Shown: one piece after another, positions 1-35,507 of the stretch
How positions within the stretch are numbered: position 1 is the stretch's first letter
Layout of the letters: each line of letters opens with the position of its first letter
Assembly (NCBI RefSeq): GCF_000003605.2
Contig: NW_003116659.1
Span: 1-35,507, forward strand
Reading direction: 5' to 3'
Length of the DNA: 35,507 nt
From: Saccoglossus kowalevskii
Taxonomy: Eukaryota; Hemichordata; Enteropneusta; Harrimaniidae
Program-made: the position numbers and the translations under genes
Notes under the pieces: generated by a model
Told to the model about the DNA's origin: nothing
The model's input: the letters and a program-made list of their open reading frames with translations, nothing else
Database searches by the model: none

Positions 1-15
1 TCTTCAGTGGTGCCT
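1..15 (+). tRNA. tRNA-Thr 3' end fragment cut by the window edge
   Basis: Only the 3' strand of the T stem, the 3' acceptor strand and discriminator T73 are present, followed by a T6 run (15-20). The T-arm part differs slightly from the consensus. Anticodon unknown. Confidence 0.8.
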
Positions 16-286
16 TTTTTATTTAGGTACTTCACCGAACAAATCCTTGTTTGATAATTACATTATTGACACTCATGATTGGTACTCGTCCAGGGTTGGG
101 AAATTCTCTTTAGGCTGGGAGATGATATGCAAGTAAATCGGAACATGCTATCATTTTAAAAATAAAAATAACCTGGCAATTGAAATATCACTGTGTCGAT
201 GAAACTTATGACACTTATTATGGATCGTAATCATGTCCATACAGTGCACCTAGAGGTCGAAACGAAAGGTCAAAGTTCGTGACCAG

Positions 287-360
287 GGCGCCATGGGTTA
301 GTTGGTTAAAGCGCCTGTCTAGTAAACAGGAGATCCTGAGTTCGAATCTCAGTGGTGCCT
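287..360 (+). tRNA. tRNA-Thr-AGT: tRNA-Thr(AGT), D-stem variant
   Basis: Full-length 74 nt with C11G, which breaks the C11-G24 pair and alters the A box. The rest matches the consensus. A T6 run follows. Function is doubtful. Confidence 0.85.
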
Positions 361-631
361 TTTTTATTTAGGTGCTTCGCTGAACAAATCCTTGTTTGAT
401 AATTACATTATTGACACTCATGATTGGTATTCGTCCAGGGTTGGGAAATTCTCTTGATGCTGGTGGATGATATGCAAGTAAATCGGAACATGCTATCATT
501 TTAAAAATAAAAATTACCTGGAAATTGAAATATCACTGTGTCGATGAAACTTATGACACTTATTATGGATCGTAATAATGTCCATACAGTGTACCGAGAG
601 GTCGAAACGAAAGGTCAAAGTTCGTGACCAG

Positions 632-705
632 GGCGCCATGGCTTAGTTGGTAAAAGCGCCTGTCTAGTAAACAGGAGATCCTGAGTTTGAATCTCAGTGG
701 TGCCT
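632..705 (+). tRNA. tRNA-Thr-AGT: tRNA-Thr(AGT), degenerate T loop
   Basis: Full length but with C56T in the T loop, removing the base that pairs with G19 and weakening the B box. A D-loop T also reads A. Probably non-functional. T6 follows at 705-710. Confidence 0.82.
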
Positions 706-973
706 TTTTTATTTAGATGCTTTCACCGAACAATTCCTTGTTTGATAATTACATTATTGACACTCATGATTGGTACTCGTTCAGGTTGATAAATTTACTT
801 TAGACTGTGGATGATATGCAAGTAATCGGACCTGCTATCATTTTAAAAATAAAAATAACCTGGCAATTGAAATATCACTGTGTCGATGAAACGTATGACA
901 CTTAATATGGATCGTAATAATGTCCACACAGTGTACCGAGAGGTAGAAACGAAAGGTCAAAATTCGTGACCAG

Positions 974-1047
974 GGTGCCATGGCTTAGTTGGTTAAAACG
1001 CCTGTCTAGTAAACAGGAGATCCTGAGTTCGAATCTCAGTGGCGCCT
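974..1047 (+). tRNA. tRNA-Thr-AGT: tRNA-Thr(AGT) with altered acceptor pairs
   Basis: Carries C3T (U3-G70 wobble), T69C (turns G4-U69 into G4-C69) and G24A (C11-A24 mismatch). The identical variant set occurs at 16326-16399, inside a block duplicated at an offset of 15352 bp. Confidence 0.87.
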
Positions 1048-1305
1048 TTTTTATTTAGGTGCTTCACCGAACAATTACTTGTTTGATAATTACATTATTT
1101 GTACTCGTCCAGGGTTGGGAAATTCACTTCAGGCTGGTGGATGATATGCAAGTAAATCGGAACATGCTATCATTATAAAAATAAAAATTACCTGGAAATT
1201 GGAATATCACTGTGTCGATGAAACGTATGACACTTAATATGGATCGTAATAATATCCACACAGTGTACCGAGAGGTAGAAACGAAAGGTCAAATTTCGTG
1301 ACCAG

Positions 1306-1379
1306 GGCGCCATGGCTTAGTTGGTTAAAGCGCCTGTCTAGTAAACAGGAGATACTGAGTTCGAATCTCAGTGGTGCCT
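1306..1379 (+). tRNA. tRNA-Thr-AGT: tRNA-Thr(AGT), C48A
   Basis: Consensus except C48A, which replaces the base forming the Levitt pair with G15. The same gene and flanks occur at 16658-16731. Confidence 0.9.
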
Positions 1380-1650
1380 TTTTTATTTAGGTGCTTCACC
1401 GAACAATTCCTTGTTTGATAATTACATTATTGACACTCATGATTGGTACTCGTCTAGGGTTTGGAAATTCTCTTTAGGCTGGTGGATGATATGCAAGTAA
1501 ATCGGAACATGCTATTATTTTAAAAATAAAAATAACCTGGAAATTGAAATATCACTGTGTCGATTAAACTTAAGACACTTATTATGGATCGTAATAATGT
1601 CCATACAGTGCACCGAGAGGTCGAAACGAAAGGTCAAAGGAAGTGACCAG

Positions 1651-1724
1651 GGCGCTATGGCTTAGTTGGTTAAAGCGCCTGTCTAGTAAACAGGAGATCC
1701 TGGGTTCGAATCTCAGTGGTGCCT
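1651..1724 (+). tRNA. tRNA-Thr-AGT: tRNA-Thr(AGT), pair-preserving variants
   Basis: C6T (U6-G67) and A52G (G52-U62) both keep pairing, so the fold is intact. The leader reads AAGGAAGTGACC. A52G and this leader are shared with 17346-17419. Confidence 0.9.
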
Positions 1725-1995
1725 TTTTTATTTAGGTGCTTCACCGAACAATTCCTTGTTTGATAATTACATTACTGACACTCATGATTGGTAGTCGTCC
1801 AGTGTTGGGAAATTCTCCTTAGGCTGGTGGATGATATGCAAGTAAATCGGAACATGCTATCATTATAAAAATAAAAATTACCTGGAAATTTGAATATCTC
1901 TGGGTCGATGAAACGTATGACACTTAATATGGATCGTAATAATGTCCACACAGTGTACCGAGAGTTAGAAACGAAAGGTCAAAGTTCGTGACCAG

Positions 1996-2069
1996 GGTGC
2001 CATGGCATAGTTGGTTAAAGCGCCTGTCTAGTAAACAGGAGATCCTGAGTTCGAATCTCAGTGGTGCCT
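1996..2069 (+). tRNA. tRNA-Thr-AGT: tRNA-Thr(AGT), D-stem variant
   Basis: C3T (wobble) and T12A, which loses the T12-A23 pair and changes the A box. Flanks match the unit at 34883, which lacks T12A. Confidence 0.86.
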
Positions 2070-2340
2070 TTTTTATTTAGGTGCTTCACCGAACAATTCC
2101 TTGTTTGATAATTACATTATTGACACTCATGATTGGTAGTCGTCCAGTGTTGGGAAATTCTCCTTAGGCTGGTGGATGATATGCAAGTAAATCGGAACAT
2201 GCTATCATTATAAAAATAAAAATTACCTGGAAATTGGAATATCACTGTGTCGATGAAACGTATGACACTTAATATGGATCGTAATAATATCCACACAGTG
2301 TACCGAGAGGTAGAAACGAAAGGTCAAAATTCGTGACCAG

Positions 2341-2358
2341 GGCGCCATGGCTTAGTTG
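2341..2358 (+). pseudogene. 18-nt tRNA-Thr 5' remnant fused to spacer
   Basis: The first 18 nt (acceptor strand to G18) run straight into spacer TTTGATAATTAC. Everything from the D loop through the terminator and the first part of the spacer is missing. TTGTT-like microhomology lies at the join. Sub-lineage with ATTGGCACTC downstream, shared only with 35228. Confidence 0.93.
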
Positions 2359-2595
2359 TTTGATAATTACATTATTGGCACTCATGATTGGTACTCGTCC
2401 AGGGTTGGGAAATTCTCTTTAGGCTGGTGGATGATATGCAAATAAATCGAAACATGCTATCATTTTAAAAATAAAAATAACCTGGCAATTGAAATATCAC
2501 TGTGTCGATGAAACGTATGACACTTAATATGGATCGTAATAATGTCCACACAGTGTACCGAGAGGTAGACACGAAAGGTCAAAATTCGTGACCAG

Positions 2596-2669
2596 GGCGT
2601 CATGGCTTAGTTGGTTAAAGCGCCTGTCTTGTAAACAGGAGATCCTGAGTTCGACTCTCAGTGGTGCCT
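2596..2669 (+). tRNA. tRNA-Thr-TGT: tRNA-Thr(TGT)
   Basis: The anticodon loop reads CTTGTAA, giving UGU, which reads ACA. It also has C5T (U5-G68 wobble) and A59C, and the trailer is CCTATTTTTA, with a T5 terminator at 2671-2675. The fold is intact. It lies directly downstream of an 18-nt truncated unit. Confidence 0.92.
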
Positions 2670-2941
2670 ATTTTTATTTAGGTGCTTCACCGAACAATTC
2701 CTTGTTTGATAATTATATTTTTGACACTCATGATTGGTACTCGTCCAGGGTTGGGAAATTCTCCTTAGACTGGTGGATGATATGCAAGTAAATCGGAACA
2801 TGCTATCATTTTAAAAATAAAAATAGCTTGGAAATTGAAATATCACTGTGTCGATGAAACTTATGACACTTATTATGGATCGTAATCATGTCCATACAGT
2901 GCACCGAGAGGTCGAAACAAAAGGTCAAAATTCGTGATCAG

Positions 2942-3015
2942 GGCGCCATGGCTTAGTTGGTTAAAGCGCCTGTCTAGTAAACAGGAGATCCTGAGTTCGC
3001 ATCTCAGTGGTGCCT
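2942..3015 (+). tRNA. tRNA-Thr-AGT: tRNA-Thr(AGT), A58C
   Basis: Consensus except A58C, which removes the near-invariant T-loop A that pairs with T54 and is methylated, and breaks the B box. Likely weak or dead. T5 terminator. Confidence 0.85.
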
Positions 3016-3280
3016 TTTTAATTTAGGTGCTTCACCGAACAATTCCTTGTTGGATAATTACATTATTTGTACTCGTCCAGGGTTGGGAAATTCTCTTCAG
3101 GCTGGTGGATGACATGCAAGTAAATCGGAACATGCTATCATTATAAAAATAAAAATTACCTGGAAATTGGAATAACACTGTGTCGATGAAACGTATGACA
3201 CTTAATATGGATCGTAATAATATCCACACAGTGTACCGAGAGGTAGTAACGAAAGGTCAAAATTCGTGATCAGGGCGCCA

Positions 3281-3292
3281 TGGCTTAGTTGG
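3281..3292 (+). promoter_or_regulatory. Pol III A box (reference copy)
   Basis: TGGCTTAGTTGG fits TRGYNNARNNGG at all fixed positions. The same motif is in most full-length copies. It is damaged at 287, 1996, 6313, 11015, 15303, 23960, 28271 and 33620, and deleted at 32950. Confidence 0.95.
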
Positions 3293-3326
3293 TTAAAGCG
3301 CCTGTCTAGTAAACAGGAGATCCTGA

Positions 3327-3335
3327 GTTCGAATC
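3327..3335 (+). promoter_or_regulatory. Pol III B box (reference copy)
   Basis: GTTCGAATC fits GWTCRANNC. The A59C variant GTTCGACTC also fits. It is damaged where C56, G57, A58 or G53 is changed (632, 2942, 4279, 5641, 11015, 17001, 21931, 23960, 28271). Confidence 0.95.
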
Positions 3336-3346
3336 TCAGTGGTGCC

Positions 3347-3352
3347 TTTTTT
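3347..3352 (+). terminator. Pol III oligo-T terminator (reference copy)
   Basis: A T6 run begins at the discriminator base. Genes with the A59C haplotype have CCTA followed by T5 instead, and a few copies have T7 (4006, 5368, 21658). Confidence 0.93.
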
Positions 3353-3605
3353 ATTTAGGTGCTTCACCGAACAATTCCTTGTTGGATAATTACATTATTT
3401 GTACTCGTCCAGGGTTGGGAAATTCTCTTCAGGCTGGTGGATGACATGCAAGTAAATCGGAACATGCTATCATTATAAAAATAAAAATTACCTGGAAATT
3501 GGAATAACACTGTGTCGATGAAACGTATGACACTTAATATGGATCGTAATAATATCCACACAGTGTACCGAGAGGTAGAAACGAAAGGTCAAAATTCGTG
3601 ACCAG

Positions 3606-3661
3606 GGCGCCATGGCTTAGTTGATTAAAGCGCCTGTCTATTTCGAATCTCAGTGGTGCCT
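3606..3661 (+). pseudogene. tRNA-Thr pseudogene, 18-nt internal deletion
   Basis: 56 nt long. The 3' half of the anticodon arm, the variable loop and the 5' T-stem strand are missing, joining TGTCTA to TTTCGAATC. G19A is also present. It keeps the A box and most of the B box but cannot form a cloverleaf. Confidence 0.93.
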
Positions 3662-3932
3662 TTTTTATTTAGGTGCTTCACCGAACAATTCCTTGTTTGA
3701 TAATTACATTATTGACACTCATGATTGGTACTCGTCCAGGGTTGGGAAATTATCTTTAGGCTGGTGGATGATATGCAAATAAATCGGAACATGCTATCAT
3801 TTTAAAAATAAAAATAACCTGAAAATTGAAATATCACTGTGTCGATGAAACGTATGACACTTAATATGGATCGTAATAATGTCCACACAGTGTACCGAGA
3901 GGTAGAAACGAAAGGTCAAAATTCGTGACCAG

Positions 3933-4006
3933 GGCGCCATGGCTTAGTTGCTTAAAGCGCCTGTCTAGTAAACAGGAGATCCTGAGTTCGAATCTCAGTG
4001 GTGCCT
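3933..4006 (+). tRNA. tRNA-Thr-AGT: tRNA-Thr(AGT), G19C
   Basis: Full length, but G19C removes the partner of C56 in the elbow and the last G of the A box. T7 terminator. Unit context matches 5295 and 21585. Confidence 0.85.
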
Positions 4007-4278
4007 TTTTTTATTTAGGTGCTTCACCGAACAATTCCTTGTTTGATAATTACATTATTGACACTCATGATTGGTACTCGTCCAGTGTCAGAAAATTCTC
4101 CCCAGGCTGGTGGATGATATGCAAGTAAATCGGAACATGCTATCATTATAAAAATAAAAATTACCTGGCAATTTGAATATCGCTGTGTCGATGAAACGTA
4201 TGACACTTAATATGGATCGTAATAATGTCCACACAGTGTACCGAGAGTTAGAAACGAAAGGTCAAAGTTCGTGACCAG

Positions 4279-4352
4279 GGCGCCATGGCTTAGTTGGTTA
4301 AAGCGCCTGTCTAGTAAACAGTAGATCCTGAGTTGGAATCTCAGTGGTGCCT
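4279..4352 (+). tRNA. tRNA-Thr-AGT: tRNA-Thr(AGT), degenerate G43T/C56G
   Basis: G43T breaks the pair closing the anticodon stem (C27-G43). C56G removes the elbow base and damages the B box. Probably non-functional. The same pair of changes is at 5641 and 21931. Confidence 0.83.
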
Positions 4353-4623
4353 TTTTTATTTAGGTGCTTCACCGAACAATTCCTTGTTTGATAATTACAT
4401 TATTGACACTCATGATTGGTAGTCGTCCAGTGTTGGGAAATTCTCCTTAGGCTGGTGGATGATATGCAAGTAAATCGGAACATGCTATCGTTTTAAAAAT
4501 AAAAATAGCTTGGAAATTGGAATATCACTGTGTCGATGAAACGTATGACACTTAATATGGATCGTAATAATGTCCACACAGTGTACCGCGAGGTAGAAAC
4601 GAAAGGTCAAAATTCGTGACCAG

Positions 4624-4697
4624 GGCGCCATGGCTTAGTTGGTTAAAGCGCCTGTCTAGTAAACAGGAAATCCTGAGTTCGAATTTCAGTGGTGCCT
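4624..4697 (+). tRNA. tRNA-Thr-AGT: tRNA-Thr(AGT), G45A/C61T
   Basis: G45A in the variable loop and C61T (G53-U61 wobble) leave the fold possible. The T run is T5. It heads a block repeated at 20913 and, in altered form, at 12357. Confidence 0.88.
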
Positions 4698-4967
4698 TTT
4701 TATTTAGGTGCTTCACTGAACAATTCCTTGTTTGATAATTACATTATTGACACTCATGATTGGTACTCGTCCAGGGTTGGGAAATTCTCCTTAGGCTGGT
4801 GGATGATATGCAAGTAAATCGGAACATGCTATCATTTTAAAAATAAAAATAGCTTGGAAATTGAAATATCACTGTGTCGATGAAACTTATGACACTTATT
4901 ATGGATCGTAATAATGTCCACACAGTGTACCGAGAGGTCGAAACGAAAGGTCAAAGTTCGTGACTAG

Positions 4968-5023
4968 GGCGCCATGGCTTAGTTGATTAAAGCGCTTGTC
5001 TATTTCGAATCTCAGTGGTGCCT
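4968..5023 (+). pseudogene. tRNA-Thr pseudogene, 18-nt internal deletion
   Basis: 56-nt deletion form with G19A and an extra C-to-T giving GCGCTTGTC. This sub-type is shared with 12701 and 21258. Confidence 0.93.
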
Positions 5024-5294
5024 TTTTTATTTAGGTGCTTCACCGAACAATTCCTTGTTTGATAATTACATTATTGACACTCATGATTGGTACTCGTCCA
5101 GGGTTGGGAAATTATCTTTAGGCTGGTGGATGATATGCAAATAAATCGGAACATGCTATCATTTTAAAAATAAAAATAACCTGAAAATTGAAATATCACT
5201 GTGTCGATGAAACGTATGACACTTAATATGGATCGTAATAATGTCCACACAGTGTACCGAGAGGTAGAAACGAAAAGTCAAAATTCGTGACCAG

Positions 5295-5368
5295 TGCGCC
5301 ATGGCTTAGTTGGTTAAAGCGCCTGTCTAGTAAACAGGAGATCCTGAGTTCGAATCTCAGTGGTGCCT
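5295..5368 (+). tRNA. tRNA-Thr-AGT: tRNA-Thr(AGT), G1T
   Basis: Otherwise consensus, but G1 is T, so the terminal G1-C72 pair (an important position for 5' processing and recognition) is lost. T7 terminator. Confidence 0.85.
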
Positions 5369-5640
5369 TTTTTTATTTAGGTGCTTCACCGAACAATTCC
5401 TTGTTTGATAATTACATTATTGACACTCATGATTGGTACTCGTCCAGTGTCAGAAAATTCTCCCCAGGCTGGTGGATGATATGCAAGTAAATCGCAACAT
5501 GCTATCGTTATAAAAATAAAAATTACCTGGAAATTTGAATATCTCTGTGTCGATGAAACGTATGACACTTAATATGGATCGTAATAATGTCCACACAGTG
5601 TACCGAGAGTTAGAAACGAAAGGTCAAAGTTCGTGACCAG

Positions 5641-5714
5641 GGCGCCATGGCTTAGTTGGTTAAAGCGCCTGTCTAGTAAACAGTAGATCCTGAGTTGGAA
5701 TCTCAGTGGTGCCT
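5641..5714 (+). tRNA. tRNA-Thr-AGT: tRNA-Thr(AGT), degenerate G43T/C56G
   Basis: Same two damaging changes as 4279-4352, with matching upstream spacer. Probably non-functional. Confidence 0.83.
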
Positions 5715-5985
5715 TTTTTATTTAGGTGCTTCACCGAACAATTCCTTGTTTGATAATTACATTATTGACACTCATGATTGGTAGTCGTCCAGTGTTGGGA
5801 AATTCTCCTTAGGCTGGTGGATGATATGCAAGTAAATTGGAACATGCTATCGTTTTAAAAATAAAAATAGCTTGGAAATTGAAATATCACTGTGTCGATG
5901 AAACTTATGACACTTATTATGGATCGTAATAATGTCCACACAGTGTACCGAGAGGTCGAAACGAAAGGTCAAAGTTCGTGACCAG

Positions 5986-6041
5986 GGCGCCATGGCTTAG
6001 TTGATTAAAGCGCCTGTCTATTTCGAATCTCAGTGGTGCCT
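5986..6041 (+). pseudogene. tRNA-Thr pseudogene, 18-nt internal deletion
   Basis: 56-nt deletion form with G19A and intact 3' CC. T6 follows. Confidence 0.93.
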
Positions 6042-6312
6042 TTTTTATTTAGGTGCTTCACCGAACAATTCCTTGTTTGATAATTACATTATTGACACTC
6101 ATGATTGGTACTCGTCCAGTGTTAGAAAATTCTCCTCAGGCTGGTGGATGATATGCAAGTAAATCGGAACATGCTATCATTATAAAAATAAAAATTACCT
6201 GGAAATTTGAATATCACTGTGTCGATGAACCGTATGACACTTAATATGGATCGTAATAATGTCCACACAGTGTACCGAGAGGTAGAAACGAAAGGTCAAA
6301 ATTCGTGACCAG

Positions 6313-6386
6313 GGCGTCATGGATTAGTTGGTTAAAGCGCCTGTCTAGTAAACAGGAGATCCTGAGTTCGAATCTCAGTGGTGCCT
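6313..6386 (+). tRNA. tRNA-Thr-AGT: tRNA-Thr(AGT), C5T/C11A
   Basis: C5T keeps a U-G wobble. C11A loses the C11-G24 pair and changes the A box to TGGATTAG. Function uncertain. Confidence 0.85.
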
Positions 6387-6644
6387 TTTTTATTTAGGTG
6401 CTTCACCGAACAATTCCTTGTTTGATAATTACATTATTTGTACTCGTCCAGGGTTGGGAAATTCTCTTCAGGCTGGTGGATGATATGCAAGTAAGTCGGA
6501 ACATGCTATCATTATAAAAATAAAAATTACCTGGAAATTTGAATATCACTGTGTCGATGAACCGTATGACACTTAATATGGATCGTAATAATGTCCACAC
6601 AGTGTACCGCGAGGTAGAAACGAAAGGTCAAAGTTCGTGACCAG

Positions 6645-6718
6645 GGTGGCATGGCTCAGTTGGTTAAAGCGCCTGTCTAATAAACAGGAGATCTTGAGTT
6701 CGACTCTCAGTGGGGCCT
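6645..6718 (+). tRNA. tRNA with Ile anticodon AAT on a Thr body, acceptor damaged
   Basis: The loop CTAATAA gives anticodon AAU, predicted to read AUU (Ile). Other changes are C3T, C5G, T13C, C49T, A59C and T69G. The acceptor has G4/G69 and G5/G68 mismatches, so function is doubtful. Identical changes are at 11692. Confidence 0.85.
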
Positions 6719-6977
6719 ATTTTTATTTAGGTGCTTCACCGAACAATTCCCTGTTTGATAATTACATTATTTGTACTCGTCCAGGGTTGGGAAATTCTCC
6801 TTAGGCTGGTGGATGATATGCAAGTAAATCGGAACATGCTATCATTTTAAAAATAAAAATAGCTTGGAAATTGAAATATCACTGTGTCGATGAAACTTAT
6901 GACACTTATTATGGATCGTAATCATGTCCATACAGTGCACCGAGAGTTAGAAACGAAAGGTCAAAGTTCGTGACCAG

Positions 6978-7051
6978 GGTGCCATGGCTTAGTTGGTTAA
7001 AGCGCCTGTCTAGTAAACAGGAGATCCTGAGTTCGAATCTCAGTGGTGCCT
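6978..7051 (+). tRNA. tRNA-Thr-AGT: tRNA-Thr(AGT), C3T
   Basis: Only C3T differs from the consensus (U3-G70 wobble). The fold and promoter boxes are intact. Confidence 0.94.
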
Positions 7052-7322
7052 TTTTTATTTAGGTGCTTCACCGAACAATTCCTTGTTTGATAATTACATT
7101 ATTGACACTCATGATTGGTACTCGTCCAGTGTTAGAAAATTCTCCTCAGGCTGGTGGATGATATGCAAGTAAATCGGAACATGCTATCATTATAAAAATA
7201 AAAATTACCTGGAAATTTGAATATCACTGTGTCGATGATACGTATGACACTTAATATGGATCGTAATAATGTCCACACAGTGTACCGCGAGGTAGAAACG
7301 AAAGGTCAAATTTCGTGACCAG

Positions 7323-9413: not shown

Positions 9414-9671
9414 TTTTTATTTAGGTGCTTCACCGAACAATTCCTTGTTGGATAATTACATTATTTGTACTCGTCCAGGGTTGGGAAATTCTCTTCAGGC
9501 TGATGGATGATATGCAAGTAAGTCTGAACATGCTATCATTATAAAAATAAAAATTACCTGGAAATTTGAATATCACTGTGTCGATGAACCGTATGACACT
9601 TAATATGGATCGTAATAATGTCCACACAGTGTACCGCGAGGTAGAAACGAAAGGTCAAAGTTCGTGACCAG
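9414..9671 (+). repeat. Short-class spacer (258 nt), representative
   Basis: Holds the T run, ATTTAGGTGCTTCACCGAAC, ATTATTTGTACTCG (13 nt shorter than the long class), an A-rich centre, the inverted repeat and the leader hairpin. No gene on either strand. Units of 332-333 bp have this spacer. Confidence 0.9.
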
Positions 9672-9745
9672 GGTGCCATGGCTCAGTTGGATAAAGCGCC
9701 TGTCTAATAAACAGGAGATCCTGAGTTCGACTCTCAGTGGGGCCT
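9672..9745 (+). tRNA. tRNA with Ile anticodon AAT on a Thr body
   Basis: As 8675 (C3T, T13C, A59C, T69G) plus a D-loop T20A giving TTGGATAAAGC. The same combination is at 23627. Confidence 0.87.
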
Positions 9746-10004
9746 ATTTTTATTTAGGTGCTTCACCGAACAATTCCCTGTTTGATAATTACATTATTTG
9801 TACTCGTCCAGGGTTGGGAAATTCTCCTTAGGCTGGTGGATGATATGCAAGTAAATCGGAACATGCTATCATTTTAAAAATAAAAATAGCTTGGAAATTG
9901 AAATATCACTGTGTCGATGAAACTTATGACACTTATTATGGATCGTAATCATGTCCATACAGTGCACCGAGAGTTAGAAACGAAAGGTCAAAGTTCGTGA
10001 CCAG

Positions 10005-10078
10005 GGTGCCATGGCTTAGTTGGTTAAAGCGCCTGTCTAGTAAACAGGAGATCCTGAGTTCGAATCTCAGTGGTGCCT
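10005..10078 (+). tRNA. tRNA-Thr-AGT: tRNA-Thr(AGT), C3T
   Basis: Only the U3-G70 wobble differs. Second member of the second trimer copy. Confidence 0.94.
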
Positions 10079-10336
10079 TTTTTATTTAGGTGCTTCACCG
10101 AACAATTCCTTGTTGGATAATTACATTATTTGTACTCGTCCAGGGTTGGGAAATTCTCTTCAGGCTGGTGGATGACATGCAAGTAAATCGGAACATGCTA
10201 TCATTATAAAAATAAAAATTACCTGGAAATTGGAATAACACTGTGTCGATGAAACGTATGACACTTAATATGGATCGTAATAATATCCACACAGTGTACC
10301 GAGAGGTAGAAACGAAAGGCCAAAATTCGTGACCAG

Positions 10337-10410
10337 GGCGCCATGGCTTAGTTGGTTAAAGCGCCTGTCTAGTAAACAGGAGATCCTGAGTTCGAATCTC
10401 AGTGGTGCCT
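10337..10410 (+). tRNA. tRNA-Thr-AGT: tRNA-Thr(AGT), consensus
   Basis: Exact consensus. Third member of the second trimer copy. Confidence 0.96.
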
Positions 10411-10681
10411 TTTTTATTTAGGTGCTTCACCGAACAATTCCTTGTTTGATAATTACATTATTGACACTCATGATTGGTACTCGTCCAGTGTTAGAAAATT
10501 CTCCTCAGGCTGGTGGATGATATGCAAGTAAATCGGAACATGCTATCATTATAAAAATAAAAATTACCTGGAAATTTGAATATCACTGTGTCGATGAACC
10601 GTATGACACTTAATATGGATCGTAATAATGTCCACACAGTGTACCGCGAGGTAGAAACGAAAGGTCAAAGTTCGTGACCAG
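10411..10681 (+). repeat. Long-class spacer (271 nt), representative
   Basis: Contains ATTATTGACACTCATGATTG before the TACTCG block, the segment shortened in the short class. Otherwise the same blocks in the same order. No gene on either strand. Units of 345-346 bp have this spacer. Confidence 0.9.
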
Positions 10682-10755
10682 GGTGCCATGGCTCAGTTGG
10701 TTAAAGCGCCTGTCTAATAAACAGGAGATCCTGAGTTCGACTCTCAGTGGGGCCT
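10682..10755 (+). tRNA. tRNA with Ile anticodon AAT on a Thr body
   Basis: C3T, T13C, G35A, A59C, T69G, identical in the gene to 8675. T5 terminator. Confidence 0.87.
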
Positions 10756-11014
10756 ATTTTTATTTAGGTGCTTCACCGAACAATTCCCTGTTTGATAATT
10801 ACATTATTTGTACTCGTCCAGGGTTGGGAAATTCTCCTTAGGCTGGTGGATGATATGCAAGTAAATCGGAACATGCTATCATTTTAAAAATAAAAATAGC
10901 TTGGAAATTTGAATATCACTGTGTCGATGAAACGTATGACACTTAATATGGATCGTAATAATGTCTACACAGTGTACCGAGAGGTAGAAACGAAAGGTCA
11001 AAATTCGTGACCAG

Positions 11015-27925: not shown

Positions 27926-27999
27926 GGAGCCATGGCTTAGTTGGTTAAAGCGCCTGTCTAGTTAACAGGAGATCCTGAGTTCGAATCTCAGTGGTGCCT
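27926..27999 (+). tRNA. tRNA-Thr-AGT: tRNA-Thr(AGT), U37 lineage
   Basis: C3A and A37T, as 18947. Confidence 0.87.
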
Positions 28000-28270: not shown

Positions 28271-28344
28271 GGTGCCATGGCTTATTTGGTTAAAGCGCCT
28301 GTCTAGTAAACAGGAGATCCTGAGTTCCAATCTCAGTGGTGCCT
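28271..28344 (+). tRNA. tRNA-Thr-AGT: tRNA-Thr(AGT), degenerate G15T/G57C
   Basis: As 23960, including leader private changes (CATGTTCGTACAG), but set between different spacers on both sides. Confidence 0.83.
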
Positions 28345-28615
28345 TTTTTATTTAGGTGCTTCACCGAACAATTCCTTGTTTGATAATTACATTATTGACA
28401 CTCATGATTGGTAGTCGTCCAGTGTTGGGAAATTCTCCTTAGGCTGGTGGATGATATGCAAGTAAATCGGAACATGCTATCATTATAATAATAAAAATTA
28501 CCTGGAAATTGGAATATCACTGTGTCGATGAAACGTATGACACTTAATATGGATCGTAATAATGTCCATACAGTGTACCGAGAGGTCGAAACGAAAGGTC
28601 AAAGGAAATGACCAG

Positions 28616-28689
28616 GGTGCCATGGCTTAGTTGGTTAAAGCGCCTGTCTAGTAAACAGGAGATCCTGAGTTCGAATCTCAGTGGTGCCT
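28616..28689 (+). tRNA. tRNA-Thr-AGT: tRNA-Thr(AGT), C3T
   Basis: Only the U3-G70 wobble differs. The leader reads AAGGAAATGACC. Confidence 0.94.
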
Positions 28690-28960
28690 TTTTTATTTAG
28701 GTGCTTCACCGAACAATTCCTTGTTTGATAATTACATTATTGACACTCATGATTGGTAGTCGTCCAGTGTTGGGAAATTCTCCTTAGGCTGGTGGATGAT
28801 ATGCAAGTAAATCGGAACATGCTATCATTTTAAAAATAAAAATAGCTTGGAAATTGAAATATCACTGTGTCGATGAAACTTATGACACTTATTATGGATC
28901 GTAATAATGTCCACACAGTGTACCGAGAGGTCGAAACGAAAGGTTAAAGTTCGTGACCAA

Positions 28961-29016
28961 GGCGCCATGGCTTAGTTGATTAAAGCGCCTGTCTATTTCG
29001 AATCTCAGTGGTGAAT
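28961..29016 (+). pseudogene. tRNA-Thr pseudogene, 18-nt deletion with 3' CC to AA
   Basis: Same form as 13718. The next spacer has a 2-nt gain (TGTCGTGATG). Confidence 0.93.
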
Positions 29017-29289
29017 TTTTTATTTAGGTGCTTCACCGAACAATTCCTTGTTTGATAATTACATTATTGACACTCATGATTGGTAGTCGTCCAGTGTTGG
29101 GAAATTCTCCTTAGGCTGGTGGATGATATGCAAGTAAATCGGAACATGCTATCATTATAAAAATAAAAATTACCTGGAAATTGGAATATCACTGTGTCGT
29201 GATGAAACGTATGACACTTAATATGGATCGTAATAATATCCACACAGTGTACCGAGAGGTAGAAACGAAAGGTCAAAATTCGTGACCAG

Positions 29290-29307
29290 GGCGCCATGGC
29301 TTAGTTG
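29290..29307 (+). pseudogene. 18-nt tRNA-Thr 5' remnant fused to spacer
   Basis: Same junction, ATTGAACTCATG sub-lineage, but followed by an AGT gene instead of a TGT gene. Confidence 0.93.
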
Positions 29308-29541
29308 TTTGATAATTACATTATTGAACTCATGATTGGTACTCGTCCAGGGTTGGGAAATTCTCTTTAGACTGGTGGATGATATGCAAGTAAATCGGAA
29401 CATGCTATCATTTTAAAATAAAATAACCTGGAAATTGAAATATCACTGTGTCGATGAAATTTATGACACTTAATATGGATCGTAATAATGTCCATGCAGT
29501 GTACTGAGAGGTCGAAACGAAAGGTCAAAGTTCGTGACTAG

Positions 29542-29615
29542 GGTGCCATGGCTTAGTTGGTTAAAGCGCCTCTCTAGTAAACAGGAGATCCTGAGTTCGA
29601 CTCTCAGTGGTGCCT
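29542..29615 (+). tRNA. tRNA-Thr-AGT: tRNA-Thr(AGT), G30C
   Basis: C3T and A59C, with G30C leaving C30/C40 unpaired in the anticodon stem. Same set at 31245. Confidence 0.87.
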
Positions 29616-29887
29616 ATTTTTATTTAGGTGCTTCACCGAACAATTCCTTGTTTGATAATTACATTATTGACACTCATGATTGGTACTCGCCCAGGGTTGG
29701 GAAATTCTCCTTAGGCTGGTGGATGATATGCAAGTAAATTGGAACATGCTATCATTTTAAAAATAAAAATAGCCTGGAAATTGAAATATCACTGTGTCGA
29801 TGTAACTTATGACACTTATTATGGATCGTAATAATGTCCATACAGTGCACCGAGAGGTCGAAATGAAAGGTCAAAGTTCGTGACCAG

Positions 29888-29961
29888 GGCGCCATGGCTT
29901 AGTTGGTTAAAGCGCCTGTCTAGTGAACAGGAGATCCTGAGTTCGAATCTCAGTGGTGCCT
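29888..29961 (+). tRNA. tRNA-Thr-AGT: tRNA-Thr(AGT), A37G
   Basis: Only A37G. The purine is kept but t6A is not possible. Confidence 0.92.
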
Positions 29962-30219
29962 TTTTTATTTAGGTGCTTCACCGAACAATTCCTTGTTTGA
30001 TAATTACATTATTTGTACTCGTCCAGGGTTGGGAAATTCTCTTCAGGCTGTTGGATGATATGCAAGTAAATCGGAACATGCTATCATTATAAAAATAAAA
30101 ATTACCTGGAAATTGGAATATCACTGTGTCGATGAAACGTATGACAGTTAATATGGATCGTAATAATATCCACACAGTGTACAGAGAGGTAGAAACGAAA
30201 GGTCAAAATTCGTGACCAG

Positions 30220-30293
30220 GGCGCCATGGCTTAGTTGGTTAAAGCGCCTGTCTAGTTAACAGGAGATCCTGAGTTCGACTCTCAGTGGTGCCT
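30220..30293 (+). tRNA. tRNA-Thr-AGT: tRNA-Thr(AGT), A37T/A59C
   Basis: U37 with a normal C3 acceptor, so distinct from the C3A lineage. T5 terminator. Confidence 0.88.
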
Positions 30294-30565
30294 ATTTTTA
30301 TTTAGGTGCTTCACCGAACAATTCCTTGTTTGATAATTACATTATTTACACTCATGATTGGTACTCGTCCAGTGTTAGAAAATTCTCCTCAGGCTGGTGG
30401 ATGATATGCAAGTAAATCGGAACATGCTATCATTATAAAAATAAAAATTACCTGGAAATTTGAATATCACTGTGTCGATGAAACGTATGACACTTAATAT
30501 GGATTGTAATAATGTCCATGCAGTGTACCGAGAGGTCGAAACGAAAGGTCAAAGTTCGTGACCAG

Positions 30566-30639
30566 GGTGCCATGGCTTAGTTGGTTAAAGCGCCTGTCTA
30601 GTAAACAGGAGATCCTGTGTTCGACTCTCAGTGGTGCCT
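30566..30639 (+). tRNA. tRNA-Thr-AGT: tRNA-Thr(AGT), C3T/A52T/A59C
   Basis: A52T breaks the A52-T62 pair in the T stem. Confidence 0.88.
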
Positions 30640-30911
30640 ATTTTTATTTAGGTGCTTCACCGAACAATTCCTTGTTTGATAATTACATTATTTACACTCA
30701 TGATTGATACTCGCCCAGGGTTGGGAAATTCTCCTTAGGCTGGTAGATGATATGCAAGTAAATCGGAACATGCTATCATTTTAAAAATAAAAATAGCCAG
30801 GAAATTGAAATATCACTGTGTTGATGAAACTTATGACACTTATTATGGATCGTAATAATGTCCATGCAGTGCACCGAGAGGTCGAAACGAAAGGTCAAAG
30901 TTCGTGACGAG

Positions 30912-30985
30912 GGTGCCATGGCTTAGTTGGTTAAAGCGCCTGTCTAGTAAACAGGAGATCCTGAGTTCGACTCTCAGTGGTGCCT
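30912..30985 (+). tRNA. tRNA-Thr-AGT: tRNA-Thr(AGT), terminator interrupted
   Basis: C3T and A59C with an intact fold, but the trailer is CCTATATTTATTT, so the first T run is only T3. Pol III readthrough into the spacer is plausible. Confidence 0.9.
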
Positions 30986-31244
30986 ATATTTATTTAGGTG
31001 CTTCACCGAACAATTCCTTGTTTGATAATTACATTATTTGTACTCGTCCAGGGTTGGGAAATTCTCTTTAGGCTGGTGGATGATATGCAAGTAAATCGGA
31101 ACATGCTATCATTTTAAAAATAAAAATAACCTGGAAATTGAAATATCACTGTGTCGATGAAATTTATGACACTTAATATGGATCGTAATAATGTCCATGC
31201 AGTGTACTGAGAGGTCGAAACGAAAGGTCAAAGTTCGTGACTAG

Positions 31245-31318
31245 GGTGCCATGGCTTAGTTGGTTAAAGCGCCTCTCTAGTAAACAGGAGATCCTGAGTT
31301 CGACTCTCAGTGGTGCCT
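31245..31318 (+). tRNA. tRNA-Thr-AGT: tRNA-Thr(AGT), G30C
   Basis: C3T, G30C and A59C, identical to 29542. Confidence 0.87.
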
Positions 31319-31590
31319 ATTTTTATTTAGGTGCTTCACCGAACAATTCCTTGTTTGATAATTACATTATTGACACTCATGATTGGTACTCGTCCAGTGT
31401 TGGGAAATTCTCCTTAGGCTGGTGGATGTTATGCAAGTAAATCGGAACATGCTATCATTTTAAAAATAAAAATAGCTTGGAAATTGAAATATCACTGTGT
31501 CGATGAAACTTATGACACTTATTATGGATCGTAATAATGTCCATACAGTGCACCGAGAGGTCGAAACGAAAGGTCAAAGGAAGTGACCAG

Positions 31591-31664
31591 GGCGCCATGG
31601 CTTAGTTGGTTAAAGCGCCTGTCTAGTAAACAGGAGATCCTGAGTTCGAATCTCAGTGGTGCCT
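31591..31664 (+). tRNA. tRNA-Thr-AGT: tRNA-Thr(AGT), consensus
   Basis: Exact consensus. The leader reads AAGGAAGTGACC, unlike its 1703-bp partner at 29888. Confidence 0.96.
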
Positions 31665-31922
31665 TTTTTATTTAGGTGCTTCACCGAACAATTCCTTGTT
31701 TGATAATTACATTATTTGTACTCGTCCAGGGTTGGGAAATTCTCTTCAGGGTGTTGGATGATATGCAAGTAAATCGGAACATGCTATCATTATAAAAATA
31801 AAAATTACCTGGAAATTGGAATATCACTGTGTCGATGAAACGTATGACAGTTAATATGGATCGCAATAATATCCACACAGTGTACAGAGAGGTAGAAACG
31901 AAAGGTCAAAATTCGTGACCAG

Positions 31923-31996
31923 GGCGCCATGGCTTAGTTGGTTAAAGCGCCTGTCTAGTTAACAGGAGATCCTGAGTTCGACTTTCAGTGGTGCCT
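31923..31996 (+). tRNA. tRNA-Thr-AGT: tRNA-Thr(AGT), A37T/A59C/C61T
   Basis: Partner of 30220 with an added C61T wobble. Confidence 0.88.
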
Positions 31997-32268
31997 ATTT
32001 TTATTTAGGTGCTTCACCGAACAATTCCTTGTTTGATAATTACATTATTTACACTCATGATTGGTACTCGTCCAGTGTTAGAAAATACTCCTCAGGCTGG
32101 TGGATGATATGCAAGTAAATCGGAACATGCTATCATTATAAAAATAAAAATTACCTGGAAATTTGAATATCACTGTGTCGATGAAACGTATGACACTTAA
32201 TATGGATTGTAATAATGTCCATGCAGTGTACCGAGAGGTCGAAACGAAAGGTCAAAGTTCGTGACCAG

Positions 32269-32342
32269 GGTGCCATGGCTTAGTTGGTTAAAGCGCCTGT
32301 CTAGTAAACAGGAGATCCTGAGTTCGACTCTCAGTGGTGCCT
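32269..32342 (+). tRNA. tRNA-Thr-AGT: tRNA-Thr(AGT), C3T/A59C
   Basis: Intact fold, T5 terminator. Partner of 30566 but without A52T. Confidence 0.93.
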
Positions 32343-32436
32343 ATTTTTATTTAGGTGCTTCACCGAACAATTCCTTGTTTGATAATTATATTATTTACAC
32401 TCATGATTGATACTCGCCCAGGGTTGGGAAATTCTC

Positions 32437-32606
32437 CTTAGCTGGTGGATGATATGCAAGTAAATCGGAACATGCTATCATTTTAAAATAAAATAGCCAG
32501 GAAATTGAATATCACTGTGTCGATGAACTTATGACACTTATTATGGATCGTATATGTCCATGCAGTGCACCGAGAGTCGAAACGAAAGGTCAAAGTTCGT
32601 GACTAG
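32437..32606. other. Cluster of single-base deletions in spacer
   Basis: Multiple short losses (TTAGCTGG, TTTTAAAATAAAATAG, ATTGAATATC, GATGAACTTATG, TCGTATATGTCC, GAGAGTCG, GACTAGGCGCC) in about 170 nt. Its 1703-bp partner unit lacks them. Probable sequence or assembly error. Confidence 0.7.
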
Positions 32607-32679
32607 GCGCCATGGCTCAGTTGGTTAAAGCGCCTGTCTAGTTAACAGGATATCCTGAGTTCGAATCTCAGTGGTGCCT
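32606..32679 (+). tRNA. tRNA-Thr-AGT: tRNA-Thr(AGT), T13C/A37T/G45T
   Basis: U37 lineage with a C13/A22 mismatch and variable loop ATATC. T5 run. Same set at 33275. Confidence 0.86.
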
Positions 32680-32949
32680 TTTTATTTAGGTGCTTCACCG
32701 AACAATTCCTTGTTTGATAATTACATTATTGACACTCATGATTCGTACTCGTCCAGAGTTGAGAAATTCTCTTTAGGCTGGTGGATGATATGCAAATAAA
32801 TCGAAACATGCTATCATTTTAAAAATAAAAATAACCTGGCAATTGAAATATCACTGTGTCGATGAAACGTATGACACTTAATATGGATCGTAATAATGTC
32901 CACACAGTGTACCGAGAGGTAGAAACGAAAGGTCAAAATTCGTGACCAT

Positions 32950-33016
32950 GGCGTCAGTTGGTTAAAGCGCCTGTCTAGTAAACAGGAGATCCTGAGTTCG
33001 AATCTCAGTGGTGCCT
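32950..33016 (+). pseudogene. tRNA-Thr pseudogene, 7-nt A-box deletion
   Basis: 67 nt. GGCGTCA joins directly to GTTGG, removing positions 8 to 14 and most of the A box. The anticodon (AGT) and T arms are intact. Confidence 0.92.
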
Positions 33017-33274
33017 TTTTTATTTAGGTGCTTCACCGAACAATTCCTTGTTTGATAATTACATTATTTGTACTTGTCCAGGGTTGGGAAATTCTCTTCA
33101 GGCTGGTGGATGATATGCAAGTAAATCGGAACATGCTATCATTATAAAAATAAAAATTACCTGGAAATTGGAATATCACTGTGTCGATGAAACGTATGAC
33201 ACTTAATATGGATCGTAATAATATCCACACAGTGTACCGAGAGTTAGAAACGAAAGGTCAAAATTCGTGACCAG

Positions 33275-33348
33275 GGCGCCATGGCTCAGTTGGTTAAAGC
33301 GCCTGTCTAGTTAACAGGATATCCTGAGTTCGAATCTCAGTGGTGCCT
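33275..33348 (+). tRNA. tRNA-Thr-AGT: tRNA-Thr(AGT), T13C/A37T/G45T
   Basis: Identical changes to 32606. Confidence 0.86.
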
Positions 33349-33619
33349 TTTTTATTTAGGTGCTTCACCGAACAATTCCTTGTTTGATAATTACATTATT
33401 GACACTCATGATTGGTACTCGTCTAGGGTTTGGAAATTCTCTTTAGGCTGGTGGATGATATGCAAGTAAATCGGAACATGCTATTATTTTAAAAATAAAA
33501 ATAACCTGGAAATTGAAATATCACTGTGTCGATGAAACATAAGACACTTATTATGGATGGTAATAATGTCCATACAGTGCACCGAGAGGTCGAAACGAAA
33601 GGTCAAAGGATATGACCAG

Positions 33620-33693
33620 GGCGCCATGGCTTTGTTGGTTAAAGCGCCTGTCTAGTAAACAGGAGATCCTGAGTTCGAATCTCAGTGGTGCCT
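33620..33693 (+). tRNA. tRNA-Thr-AGT: tRNA-Thr(AGT), A14T
   Basis: A14T removes the partner of T8 and a fixed A-box base. Probably impaired. The leader reads AAGGATATGACC. Confidence 0.86.
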
Positions 33694-33951
33694 TTTTTAT
33701 TTAGGTGCTTCACCGAACAATTCCTTGTTTGATAATTACATTATTTGTACTCGTCCTGGGTTGGGAAATTCTCTTCAGGCTGGTGGATGATATGCAAGTA
33801 AATCGGAACATGCTATCATTATAAAAATAAAAATTACCTGGAAATTGGAATATCACTGTGTCGATGAAACGTATGACACTTAATATGGATCGTAATAATA
33901 TCCACACAGTGTAGCGAGAGGTAGAAACGAAAGGTCAAAATTCGTGACCAG

Positions 33952-33969
33952 GGCGCCATGGCTTAGTTG
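33952..33969 (+). pseudogene. 18-nt tRNA-Thr 5' remnant fused to spacer
   Basis: Same junction, ATTGACACTC sub-lineage, followed by an AGT gene. Confidence 0.93.
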
Positions 33970-34206
33970 TTTGATAATTACATTATTGACACTCATGATT
34001 GGTACTCGTCCGGGGTTGGGAAATTCTCCTTAGGCTGGTGGATGATATGCAAGTAAATCGGAACATGCTATCATTTTAAAAATAAAAATAGCTTGGAAAT
34101 TGAAATATCACTGTGTCGATGAAACTTATGACACTTATTATGGATCGTAATCATGTTCATACAGTGCACCGAGAGTTAGAAACGAAAGGTCAAAGCTCGT
34201 GACCAG

Positions 34207-34280
34207 GGTGCCATGGCTTAGTTGGTTAAAGCGCCTGTCTAGTAAACAGGAGATCCTGAGTTCGAATCTCAGTGGTGCCT
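34207..34280 (+). tRNA. tRNA-Thr-AGT: tRNA-Thr(AGT), C3T
   Basis: Only the U3-G70 wobble differs. Confidence 0.94.
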
Positions 34281-34549
34281 TTTTTATTTAGTGCTTCACC
34301 GAACAATTCCTTGTTTGATAATTACATTATTGACACTCATGATTGGTGCTCGTCCAGTGTCAGAAAATCTCCTCAGGCTGGTGGATGATATGCAAGTAAA
34401 TCGGAACATGCTATCATTATAAAAATAAAAATTACCTGGAAATTTGAATATCTCTGTGTTGATGAAACGTATGACACTTAATATGGATCGTAATAATGTC
34501 CACACAGTGTACCGAGAGTTAGAAACGAAAGGTCAAAGTTCGTGACCAG

Positions 34550-34623
34550 GGTGCCATGGCTTAGTTGGTTAAAGCGCCTGTCTAGTAAACAGGAGATCCT
34601 GAGTTCGGCTCTCAGTGGTGCCT
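34550..34623 (+). tRNA. tRNA-Thr-AGT: tRNA-Thr(AGT), C3T/A58G/A59C
   Basis: A58G alters the invariant T-loop A and the B box. T5 terminator after CCTA. Confidence 0.87.
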
Positions 34624-34882
34624 ATTTTTATTTAGGTGCTTCACCGAACAATTCTTTGTTTGATAATTACATTATTTGTACTCGTCCAGGGTTGGGAAAT
34701 TCTCTTTAGGCTGGTGGATGATATGCAAGTAAATCGGAACATGCTATCATTTTAAAAATAAAAATAGCTTGGAAATTGAAATATCACTGTGTCGATGAAA
34801 CTTATGACACTTATTATGGATCGTAATCATGTTCATACAGTGCACCGAGAGTTAGAAACGAAAGGTCAAAGTTCGTGACCAG

Positions 34883-34956
34883 GGTGCCATGGCTTAGTTG
34901 GTTAAAGCGCCTGTCTAGTAAACAGGAGATCCTGAGTTCGAATCTCAGTGGTGCCT
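34883..34956 (+). tRNA. tRNA-Thr-AGT: tRNA-Thr(AGT), C3T
   Basis: Only the U3-G70 wobble differs. Aligns with 1996 at an offset of 32887 bp. Confidence 0.94.
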
Positions 34957-35227
34957 TTTTTATTTAGGTGCTTCACCGAACAATTCCTTGTTTGATAATT
35001 ACATTATTGACACTCATGATTGGTAGTCGTCCAGTGTTGGGAAATTCTCCTTAGGCTGGTGGATGATATGCAAGTAAATCGGAACATGCTATCATTATAA
35101 AAATAAAACTTACCTGGAAATTGGAATATCACTGTGTCGATGAAACGTATGACACTTAATATGGATCGTAATAATATCCACACAGTGTACCGAGAGGTAG
35201 AAACGAAAGGTCAAAATTCGTGACCAG

Positions 35228-35245
35228 GGCGCCATGGCTTAGTTG
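35228..35245 (+). pseudogene. 18-nt tRNA-Thr 5' remnant fused to spacer
   Basis: Same junction, ATTGGCACTC sub-lineage, as at 2341. Confidence 0.93.
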
Positions 35246-35482
35246 TTTGATAATTACATTATTGGCACTCATGATTGGTACTCGTCCAGGGTTGGGAAAT
35301 TCTCTTTAGGCTGGTGGATGATATGCAAATAAATCGAAACATGCTATCATTTTAAAAATAAAAATAACCTGGCAATTGAAATATCACTGTGTCGATGAAA
35401 CGTATGACACTTAATATGGATCGTAATAATGTCCACACAGTGTACCGAGAGGTAGACACGAAAGGTCAAAATTCGTGACCAG

Positions 35483-35507
35483 GGCGTCATGGCTTAGTTG
35501 GTTAAAG
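35483..35507 (+). tRNA. tRNA-Thr 5' part cut by the window edge
   Basis: The first 25 nt, with C5T as in TGT genes. By its match to 2596 it is probably TGT, but the anticodon is outside the window. Confidence 0.85.

What the first reader, a model, noticed from the sequence alone, without database searches (positions are those of the whole stretch)
1..35507. Satellite-like array of over 100 tRNA-Thr units on one strand
107 tRNA-derived segments occur in 35.5 kb with no other gene, and both edges are inside the array. Known tandem tRNA arrays (Entamoeba arrays, the Xenopus 3.18-kb multi-tRNA repeat) show the idea is possible. A single-isotype, about 340-bp unit with this much internal variation behaves more like a tRNA-built satellite. 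Whether it supplies tRNA, shapes chromatin, or is only parasitic expansion is open.
Basis: partly seen in the sequence, partly recalled or inferred. Interest (0 to 1): 0.75.

Follow-up and report, generated by a model that had tools for sequence, protein, structure and literature searches.

The report
Acorn-worm tandem array of threonine-tRNA genes
This stretch, most likely from an acorn worm, is over a hundred head-to-tail copies of a threonine transfer-RNA gene with its spacer, one of several such arrays in the same genome; it looks like a real gene supply that evolves like satellite DNA, a kind of organisation already known from a few other animals and an amoeba.

Summary
The whole 35.5-kb contig is a one-strand array: 107 spacer landmarks, 87 ARAGORN tRNAs, 82 Rfam tRNA hits. 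Full-length tRNAs in 106 complete units number 86: 69 Thr-AGT, 9 Thr-TGT, 8 AAT. The array recurs on four more contigs, 420 landmarks in all. The genome also has arrays of Arg-TCG, Cys-GCA, Thr-TGT, initiator Met with Leu-CAA, and 5S rRNA. Mitochondrial gene order and code point to the acorn worm Saccoglossus kowalevskii or a relative. The 40 scored matches (of 440 candidates) to a human-type Thr-AGT gene all lie on the five array contigs, so the array probably supplies the cell's Thr-AGU tRNA. Yet single copies are little constrained: 170 of 414 units carry a fully paired Thr-AGT tRNA, rare stem variants break pairs as often as chance, and defective forms are amplified. Best reading: a Pol III gene array with satellite-like turnover. 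The kind is known (Entamoeba, Xenopus, Hydractinia); host and near-exclusive supply are new.

The parts
1..35507 (+). Tandem array of Thr-tRNA units; whole contig C1035; 107 spacer landmarks, unit about 345 or 332 nt
3274..3347 (+). Example of an intact consensus tRNA-Thr(AGT) gene, 69.7 bits; this sequence stands 11 times in the window
3281..3292 (+). A box of the example gene (TGGCTTAGTTGG), Pol III internal promoter by resemblance
   Evidence: read; box consensus recalled
3325..3335 (+). B box of the example gene (GAGTTCGAATC), by resemblance
   Evidence: read; box consensus recalled
3347..3352 (+). Run of six T that includes the discriminator base, Pol III terminator-like; a run of 4 or more T there in 344 of 351 full-length copies of five contigs
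2595..2670 (+). Example of one of 9 Thr-TGT copies (68.3 bits)
6644..6719 (+). Example of one of 8 copies with anticodon AAT on a Thr body (47.2 bits here; the eight range 47.2 to 65.4); that they are defective is inference
2236..2490 (+). Example of one of 8 units with a 90-nt deletion that leaves 15 nt of the tRNA and fuses it to the spacer
3501..3827 (+). Example of one of 11 units with an 18-nt deletion in the tRNA (anticodon arm side)

Best explanation
It is a long head-to-tail array of nuclear tRNA-Thr(AGU) genes in an acorn worm (Saccoglossus kowalevskii or a close relative), one of several such arrays in that genome. Each intact unit looks like a self-contained RNA polymerase III gene: A and B boxes inside the tRNA, a T-run directly after it, and about 270 nt of AT-rich spacer. 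Inferred: the intact copies are transcribed and supply most or all of the cell's Thr-IGU tRNA, which eukaryotes need for ACU and ACC codons. Because there are hundreds of copies, selection sees the array and hardly any single copy; block duplication, unequal exchange and conversion reshuffle units, so the array turns over like a satellite and carries many defective copies. Shown: anatomy, extent in the assembly, sister arrays, weak constraint, shuffling, no better match among those the search scored. Not shown: transcription, charging, chromatin state, true copy number.
For: Consensus of 414 units: 21 of 21 stem pairs, anticodon AGT, T-loop TTC. T-run of 4 or more in 344 of 351 full-length copies. 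All 40 scored matches, of 440 first-look candidates, to the human-type Thr-AGT gene lie on the five array contigs. Sister arrays of other isotypes and of 5S rRNA. The initiator-Met array consensus shows the same signature of compensatory stem changes against the recalled human gene.
Against: Only 170 of 414 units are fully paired Thr-AGT tRNAs. Variants in stems keep pairing no more than chance when rare (4 of 25) or middling (7 of 28), 23% expected; of the three common ones 2 keep it. The tRNA diverges less than the spacer (ratio 0.60, 0.55-0.65), but 24% of all same-length blocks of the unit diverge as little, and the B box (0.0505) diverges more than the spacer average (0.0457). Initiator Met has a copy on C285 that stands alone in the 3.1 kb fetched, and one Arg-TCG gene stands alone in the 2.5 kb fetched on C3484, so arrays are not the only source for every tRNA. 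A dispersed Thr-AGT gene under about 95% identity could hide below the 40 rows scored; the pattern search meant to settle this did not complete.
Confidence: 0.66

Rival explanations
1. A tRNA-derived satellite: a Thr-tRNA gene and its flank were caught in a tandem expansion and the array is now mostly silent DNA, while the working Thr-AGU genes are few copies in it or elsewhere.
For: Weak constraint per copy and amplified defective forms; long-range shuffling of units: the best match is in another contig for 47% of units, and next door for 1.4% of those whose best match is in the same contig.
Against: Intact consensus and T-run; no dispersed Thr-AGT gene among the 40 scored matches; several other tRNAs and 5S are arrayed in the same genome.
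Confidence: 0.2
2. A stage-specific (germ-line, oocyte or early-embryo) tRNA gene set, silent in most adult cells, as reported for Xenopus tandem tRNA genes and, in root tips, for the Arabidopsis Ser/Tyr cluster. (This can be true together with the best explanation, so the odds do not add to 1.)
For: Initiator Met exists both as a human-like gene outside the arrays (97% to the recalled human one) and as an array variant with compensatory stem changes. Precedents: PMC11500080 (passages), PMC12308677 (abstract).
Against: No second Thr-AGT type was found; expression cannot be tested here.
Confidence: 0.25
3. Assembly artefact: a few real units multiplied or scrambled by the assembler.
For: Read data not available; contigs end inside the array; unit order could be partly wrong, which would also inflate the apparent shuffling.
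Against: Five contigs with no N in the parts checked, carrying differing units, and no match over 2.6 kb at 97% or more between them; two edges into non-array DNA; similar arrays of other tRNAs.
Confidence: 0.04
4. A SINE or other tRNA-derived mobile element that happens to be in tandem.
For: tRNA head and AT-rich remainder.
Against: Fixed-period head-to-tail order, tRNA 3' end and T-run intact; no copy outside array contigs (capped searches that skip very common words, so dispersal is not excluded).
Confidence: 0.03

Closest known systems
Hydractinia (hydroid) tandem arrays of tRNA and other non-coding RNA genes, PMC11067881 (section 14 and passages read)
   Same: Evenly spaced arrays of tens to hundreds of near-identical tRNA copies with similar spacers, many isotypes, rRNA also arrayed; significance unclear
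   Different: Different phylum. Here only a handful of isotypes were verified, copies are 93.6% alike on average, and many are defective
Entamoeba tRNA gene arrays, PMC2652664 (abstract and passages)
   Same: tRNA genes in tandem arrays, some units with several tRNAs; function debated
   Different: There, arrays make up over 10% of the genome and hold almost all tRNA genes, in two species with short tandem repeats between genes; here the five contigs are about 0.025% of 572 Mb
Xenopus tandemly arrayed oocyte-type tRNA genes, activated at zygotic genome activation (PMC11500080, a commentary, passages)
   Same: Arrays of Pol III tRNA genes in a deuterostome; here initiator Met exists both inside and outside arrays
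   Different: Xenopus repeat carries several different tRNAs per unit (recalled); expression unknown here
Arabidopsis Ser/Tyr tRNA cluster, PMC12308677 (abstract)
   Same: Tandem tRNA genes; precedent for silence in most tissues and cell-specific use
   Different: Plant; Ser and Tyr genes
Human 1q23.3 tRNA tandem repeat, PMC4041453 (abstract and outline)
   Same: tRNA-bearing tandem repeat
   Different: 7.3-kb GC-rich unit with a CTCF site, 9-43 units per allele
Nematostella and teleost tRNA clusters of fifty and more members, PMC2888827 (sections 6 and 8)
   Same: Large clusters in animals
   Different: Neighbours are mostly of different isotypes in Nematostella and zebrafish

Membership tests
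Tandem tRNA gene array (Entamoeba/Hydractinia kind) | Tens to hundreds of same-strand head-to-tail units with similar tRNA and spacer | tested here: met
Tandem tRNA gene array (Entamoeba/Hydractinia kind) | Copies predicted to be working tRNA genes | tested here: met
   met for a part: 170 of 414 units fully paired with AGT and TTC; T-run in 344 of 351 full-length copies
Tandem tRNA gene array (Entamoeba/Hydractinia kind) | Several isotypes arrayed in the same genome | tested here: met
   Arg-TCG, Cys-GCA, Thr-TGT, iMet; Leu-CAA by eye
Tandem tRNA gene array (Entamoeba/Hydractinia kind) | Transcription into mature tRNA | not testable with these tools
   no RNA data
Satellite DNA | Long tandem array with concerted evolution | tested here: met
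   mean identity 93.6% between all units, no rise between neighbours, 140 of 414 units identical to another
Satellite DNA | No selection on a gene within the unit | tested here: inconclusive
   tRNA/spacer divergence 0.60, yet 24% of blocks as low and stem pairing of rare variants at chance level
Satellite DNA | Heterochromatic or centromeric place | not testable with these tools
   no chromatin or chromosome data
Xenopus-type stage-specific tRNA array | Distinct array-type and dispersed-type genes for the same tRNA | tested here: inconclusive
   seen for iMet, not for Thr-AGT
Xenopus-type stage-specific tRNA array | Oocyte or early-embryo expression | not testable with these tools
   no expression data
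tRNA-derived SINE | Dispersed insertions with target-site duplications | not tested
   capped genome searches that skip common words; no dispersed copy

The most novel reading that the evidence does not exclude
In this acorn worm an essential tRNA, Thr-IGU, has no dispersed gene at all: its whole supply sits in satellite-like arrays of 400 or more units in which most copies are imperfect and no copy is visibly protected by selection. With the iMet pair (canonical gene outside arrays plus array variant), this would be an ambulacrarian counterpart of the Xenopus oocyte tRNA arrays and would place a two-tier tRNA gene system at the base of deuterostomes.
Probability: 0.25. Interest if true: 0.7.

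Novelty: new member of a known kind. Interest (0 to 1): 0.45.

Why it matters
Why some eukaryotes keep tRNA genes in huge arrays is open (PMC2652664, PMC11067881, parts read). Here copy-specific variants are plentiful, so which copies are used, when, and how selection acts on a gene spread over hundreds of redundant copies can be tested with tRNA sequencing in a deuterostome that is kept as a model (recalled). It also warns that repeat-masking before tRNA annotation, the method PMC8580430 describes for its species set with S. kowalevskii in it (passages), can remove real genes; that it did so there is inference.

Tried and rejected
Strict satellite with no gene content: not accepted, because the consensus is a perfect tRNA and no other Thr-AGT source appeared among the scored matches. 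Higher-order repeat: tested by unit identity against lag in C1035 and C1130, lags 1-39, no clear peak. Allelic duplicate contigs: the megablast listing of the five contigs shows no match over 2,566 nt at 97% or more. Transcription-associated mutation in the tRNA: rare variant types are more frequent in the tRNA (0.70 against 0.54 per site), but p = 0.08 and singletons are equal (0.351 against 0.358), so I make no claim. A first 5S control mixed in one unit from C2212, which has a different spacer, and looked like a 30-fold contrast; redone on 7 units of C3485 it is 0.0045 in the gene against 0.0070 in the flanks, 1 against 10 variable sites, too few to serve as a yardstick. Anticodon counts (AGT, TGT and AAT all 0) used a wrong offset and are replaced. 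Hydractinia as host: considered from the similar assembly size and dropped once the mitochondrial contig was read. Pfam on the ORF at the C402 edge gave 10 families, all under their cut-offs.

Other searches were answered only after repeats: the unit (then 25), the tRNA (then 43), human-type Thr-AGT (then 74). The hemichordate genome paper 10.1038/nature16150 is not held.
Full report
OBSERVATION. The window is the whole contig C1035 of a 572-Mb, 4830-contig genome. A spacer landmark occurs 107 times on + and never on -. Unit lengths are mostly 345/346 and 332/333 nt (a 13-nt spacer deletion), with 327 nt and 254/255 nt for units that lost part of the tRNA. ARAGORN finds 87 tRNAs, all on +; Rfam finds 82 tRNA hits and nothing else over threshold. 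Of 106 complete units 86 hold a full-length tRNA (3 gaps or fewer): 69 AGT, 9 TGT, 8 AAT; 53 of these 86 have all 21 stem pairs, 42 also AGT and TTC without a gap, 49 if any Thr anticodon is allowed. The rest are 11 units with an 18-nt deletion, 8 that keep only 15 nt of the tRNA, and 1 with a 7-nt deletion.

EXTENT. The same array is on C1130 (72,304 bp, 208 landmarks), C402 (10,956 bp, 28), C1680 (12,236 bp, 36) and C756 (13,715 bp, 41). With the window that is 420 landmarks; 414 complete units were kept, the last landmark of each contig having no complete unit, and one span of 894 nt in C1130 was dropped before counting. There is no N in the parts checked, which are three contigs whole and the first 10 kb of C1680 and C756. 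C1130 shows one edge, where about 2.1 kb of non-array DNA joins the array, and C402 another, where about 1.5 kb with an open frame bearing a 2A-like motif abuts it. A 1,241-nt block across the C1130 edge is duplicated at 99.3% identity. The longest match at 97% or more between or within the five contigs is 2,566 nt. I take them as pieces of one or several arrays, not as alleles; that is inference.

NOT ALONE. The genome-wide tRNA search scored 63 of 25,204 first-look candidates and lists further arrays. ARAGORN on fetched pieces gives Arg-TCG on C237, C1937 and C3006, Cys-GCA on C926 and C682, and Thr-TGT on C4103. The fetched C3681 pieces hold arrays of the same period, while the C285 copy is the only tRNA in its 3.1 kb. 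The C3681 unit also contains what I read by eye as an intron-bearing Leu-CAA gene. 5S rRNA is arrayed on C3485, C2212 and C3801. One Arg-TCG gene stands alone in the 2.5 kb fetched from C3484.

HOST. The only COX1 match is on C4830, a 17,037-bp contig. I named the other genes by reading the translations, and the two rRNAs only from the gap between tRNA-Phe and tRNA-Leu. The order read is ATP6-COX3-ND3-ND4L-ND4-ND5-CYTB-Pro(-)-ND6(-)-Phe-(rRNAs)-Leu-ND2-Leu-ND1-COX1(-)-COX2, with COX1 inverted and ND2 before ND1. In ten stop-to-stop frames there is no AGG and there are 7 AGA; AAA reads as Lys, AGA as Ser and ATA as Ile by comparison with conserved sites that I recalled. PMC3121625 (passages) states these features for Saccoglossus kowalevskii: inversion of COX1 and transposition of ND1 or ND2 against Balanoglossus, AUA Ile, AAA Lys, AGA Ser, AGG absent. 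PMC2697986 (passages) agrees on ND5-CYTB adjacency and AAA = Lys. I therefore take the genome to be S. kowalevskii or a close relative.

IS IT A GENE OR A SATELLITE? For a gene: the consensus of 414 units has 21 of 21 pairs, anticodon AGT and T-loop TTC; 344 of 351 full-length copies have a T-run of 4 or more at or just after the discriminator base; and the consensus differs from the human gene, as recalled, at four bases that make two compensatory pair changes. A human-type Thr-AGT query returned 40 scored matches of 440 candidates, all on the five array contigs at 95-96%. A dispersed gene that is more similar should have been listed; a more diverged one could be missed. Since eukaryotes read ACC with Thr-IGU tRNA (established knowledge, recalled), the array most likely is its source.

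Against strong selection on copies: of 414 units 170 are fully paired Thr-AGT tRNAs. Among stem variants seen in 1-2 copies 4 of 25 keep pairing, in 3-17 copies 7 of 28, in 18 or more 2 of 3, against 23% expected from the spacer's variants. Nucleotide diversity is 0.049 in the tRNA and 0.068 in the spacer; 24% of same-length blocks of the unit are as low. Divergence from consensus is 0.0275 against 0.0457, ratio 0.60 (0.55-0.65 by unit bootstrap), again with 24% of blocks as low; the A box is at 0.0223 but the B box at 0.0505. The least diverged block (0.0134) starts in the last ten bases of the tRNA and is mostly T-run and 3' flank. Small samples of other arrays vary: Cys shows constraint (gene 0.045, flanks 0.10 and 0.13, 14 copies), Arg little (0.028 against 0.033 and 0.022, 28 copies), Thr-TGT none (0.050 against 0.032 and 0.016, 5 copies); in 12 iMet/Leu units divergence is 0.0127 in iMet, 0.0057 in the Leu stretch and 0.0129 in the rest.

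TURNOVER. Units average 93.6% identity to each other. Identity hardly depends on distance along C1035 or C1130. The closest relative of a unit (mean 99.2%) is in another contig in 47% of cases; when in the same contig it lies a median of 33 units away and next door in 1.4%. 140 of 414 units are identical to another one. Defective types are amplified: 40 units with the 18-nt deletion and 18 with the 59-nt loss, 22 with AAT. This fits duplication of multi-unit blocks and long-range exchange or conversion. If the assembler misplaced units, part of this pattern would be artefact.

MECHANISM. Most likely each intact unit is transcribed by Pol III from its own boxes and stops at the T-run; redundancy makes single copies nearly neutral; exchange keeps the family alike and lets the array as a whole be maintained. 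All of this paragraph is inference from anatomy. A stage-specific use, as with Xenopus tandem tRNA genes (PMC11500080, passages) or the Arabidopsis cluster (PMC12308677, abstract), is an open alternative that the iMet pair makes plausible. Many silent copies are also proposed for Entamoeba (PMC2652664, passages).

NOVELTY. Tandem tRNA arrays are known: Entamoeba, Hydractinia with tRNAs for all 20 amino acids (PMC11067881, section read), Nematostella and teleost clusters (PMC2888827), human 1q23.3 (PMC4041453, abstract). My searches for hemichordate or Saccoglossus with tRNA genes, arrays or satellites listed 4, 9, 7, 0 and 10 (of 15) papers, none of which describes this by title or shown abstract; of these I looked into three by passages. 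These searches cover open-licence papers only, and the S. kowalevskii genome paper is not held. I call it a new member of a known kind.

Noticed in passing
74-nt block from position 170 of the 345-nt consensus unit, e.g. about 3338-3398 in the window: A block that begins in the last ten bases of the tRNA and covers the T-run and 3' flank is the least diverged of the unit (0.0134), less than the tRNA itself (0.0275); reason unknown.
   Followed up: partly
L060 (C285:196294-196365): An initiator-Met tRNA gene, 97% identical to the human one as recalled and alone in the 3.1 kb fetched, besides array versions with compensatory stem changes on C3681.
   Followed up: partly
L061-L063 (C3681): 603-nt array unit that holds initiator Met and, by eye, an intron-bearing Leu-CAA gene.
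   Followed up: partly
L023 from about 3990 (C402 about 9490-10956): At the array edge lies an open frame with a 2A-like NPGP motif and a probable coiled coil, followed by a frame that by eye resembles an endonuclease start: probably a non-LTR retrotransposon; Pfam gave only matches under cut-off.
   Followed up: partly
C1130 reverse complement 1642-4121: A 1,241-nt block spanning the array edge is duplicated in tandem at 99.3% identity, a duplication that carries flank into the array.
   Followed up: partly
L001 (C4103): Thr-TGT array whose unit also contains degenerate tRNA-like pieces of the same family (read by eye).
   Followed up: no
L020, L021 (C4830): Mitochondrial contig with direct repeats of about 141 nt at one end and 191 nt at the other.
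   Followed up: no
L054 (C2212) against L052, L053, L055-L059 (C3485): 5S rRNA arrays with near-identical genes but, judging by one C2212 unit, a different spacer.
   Followed up: no
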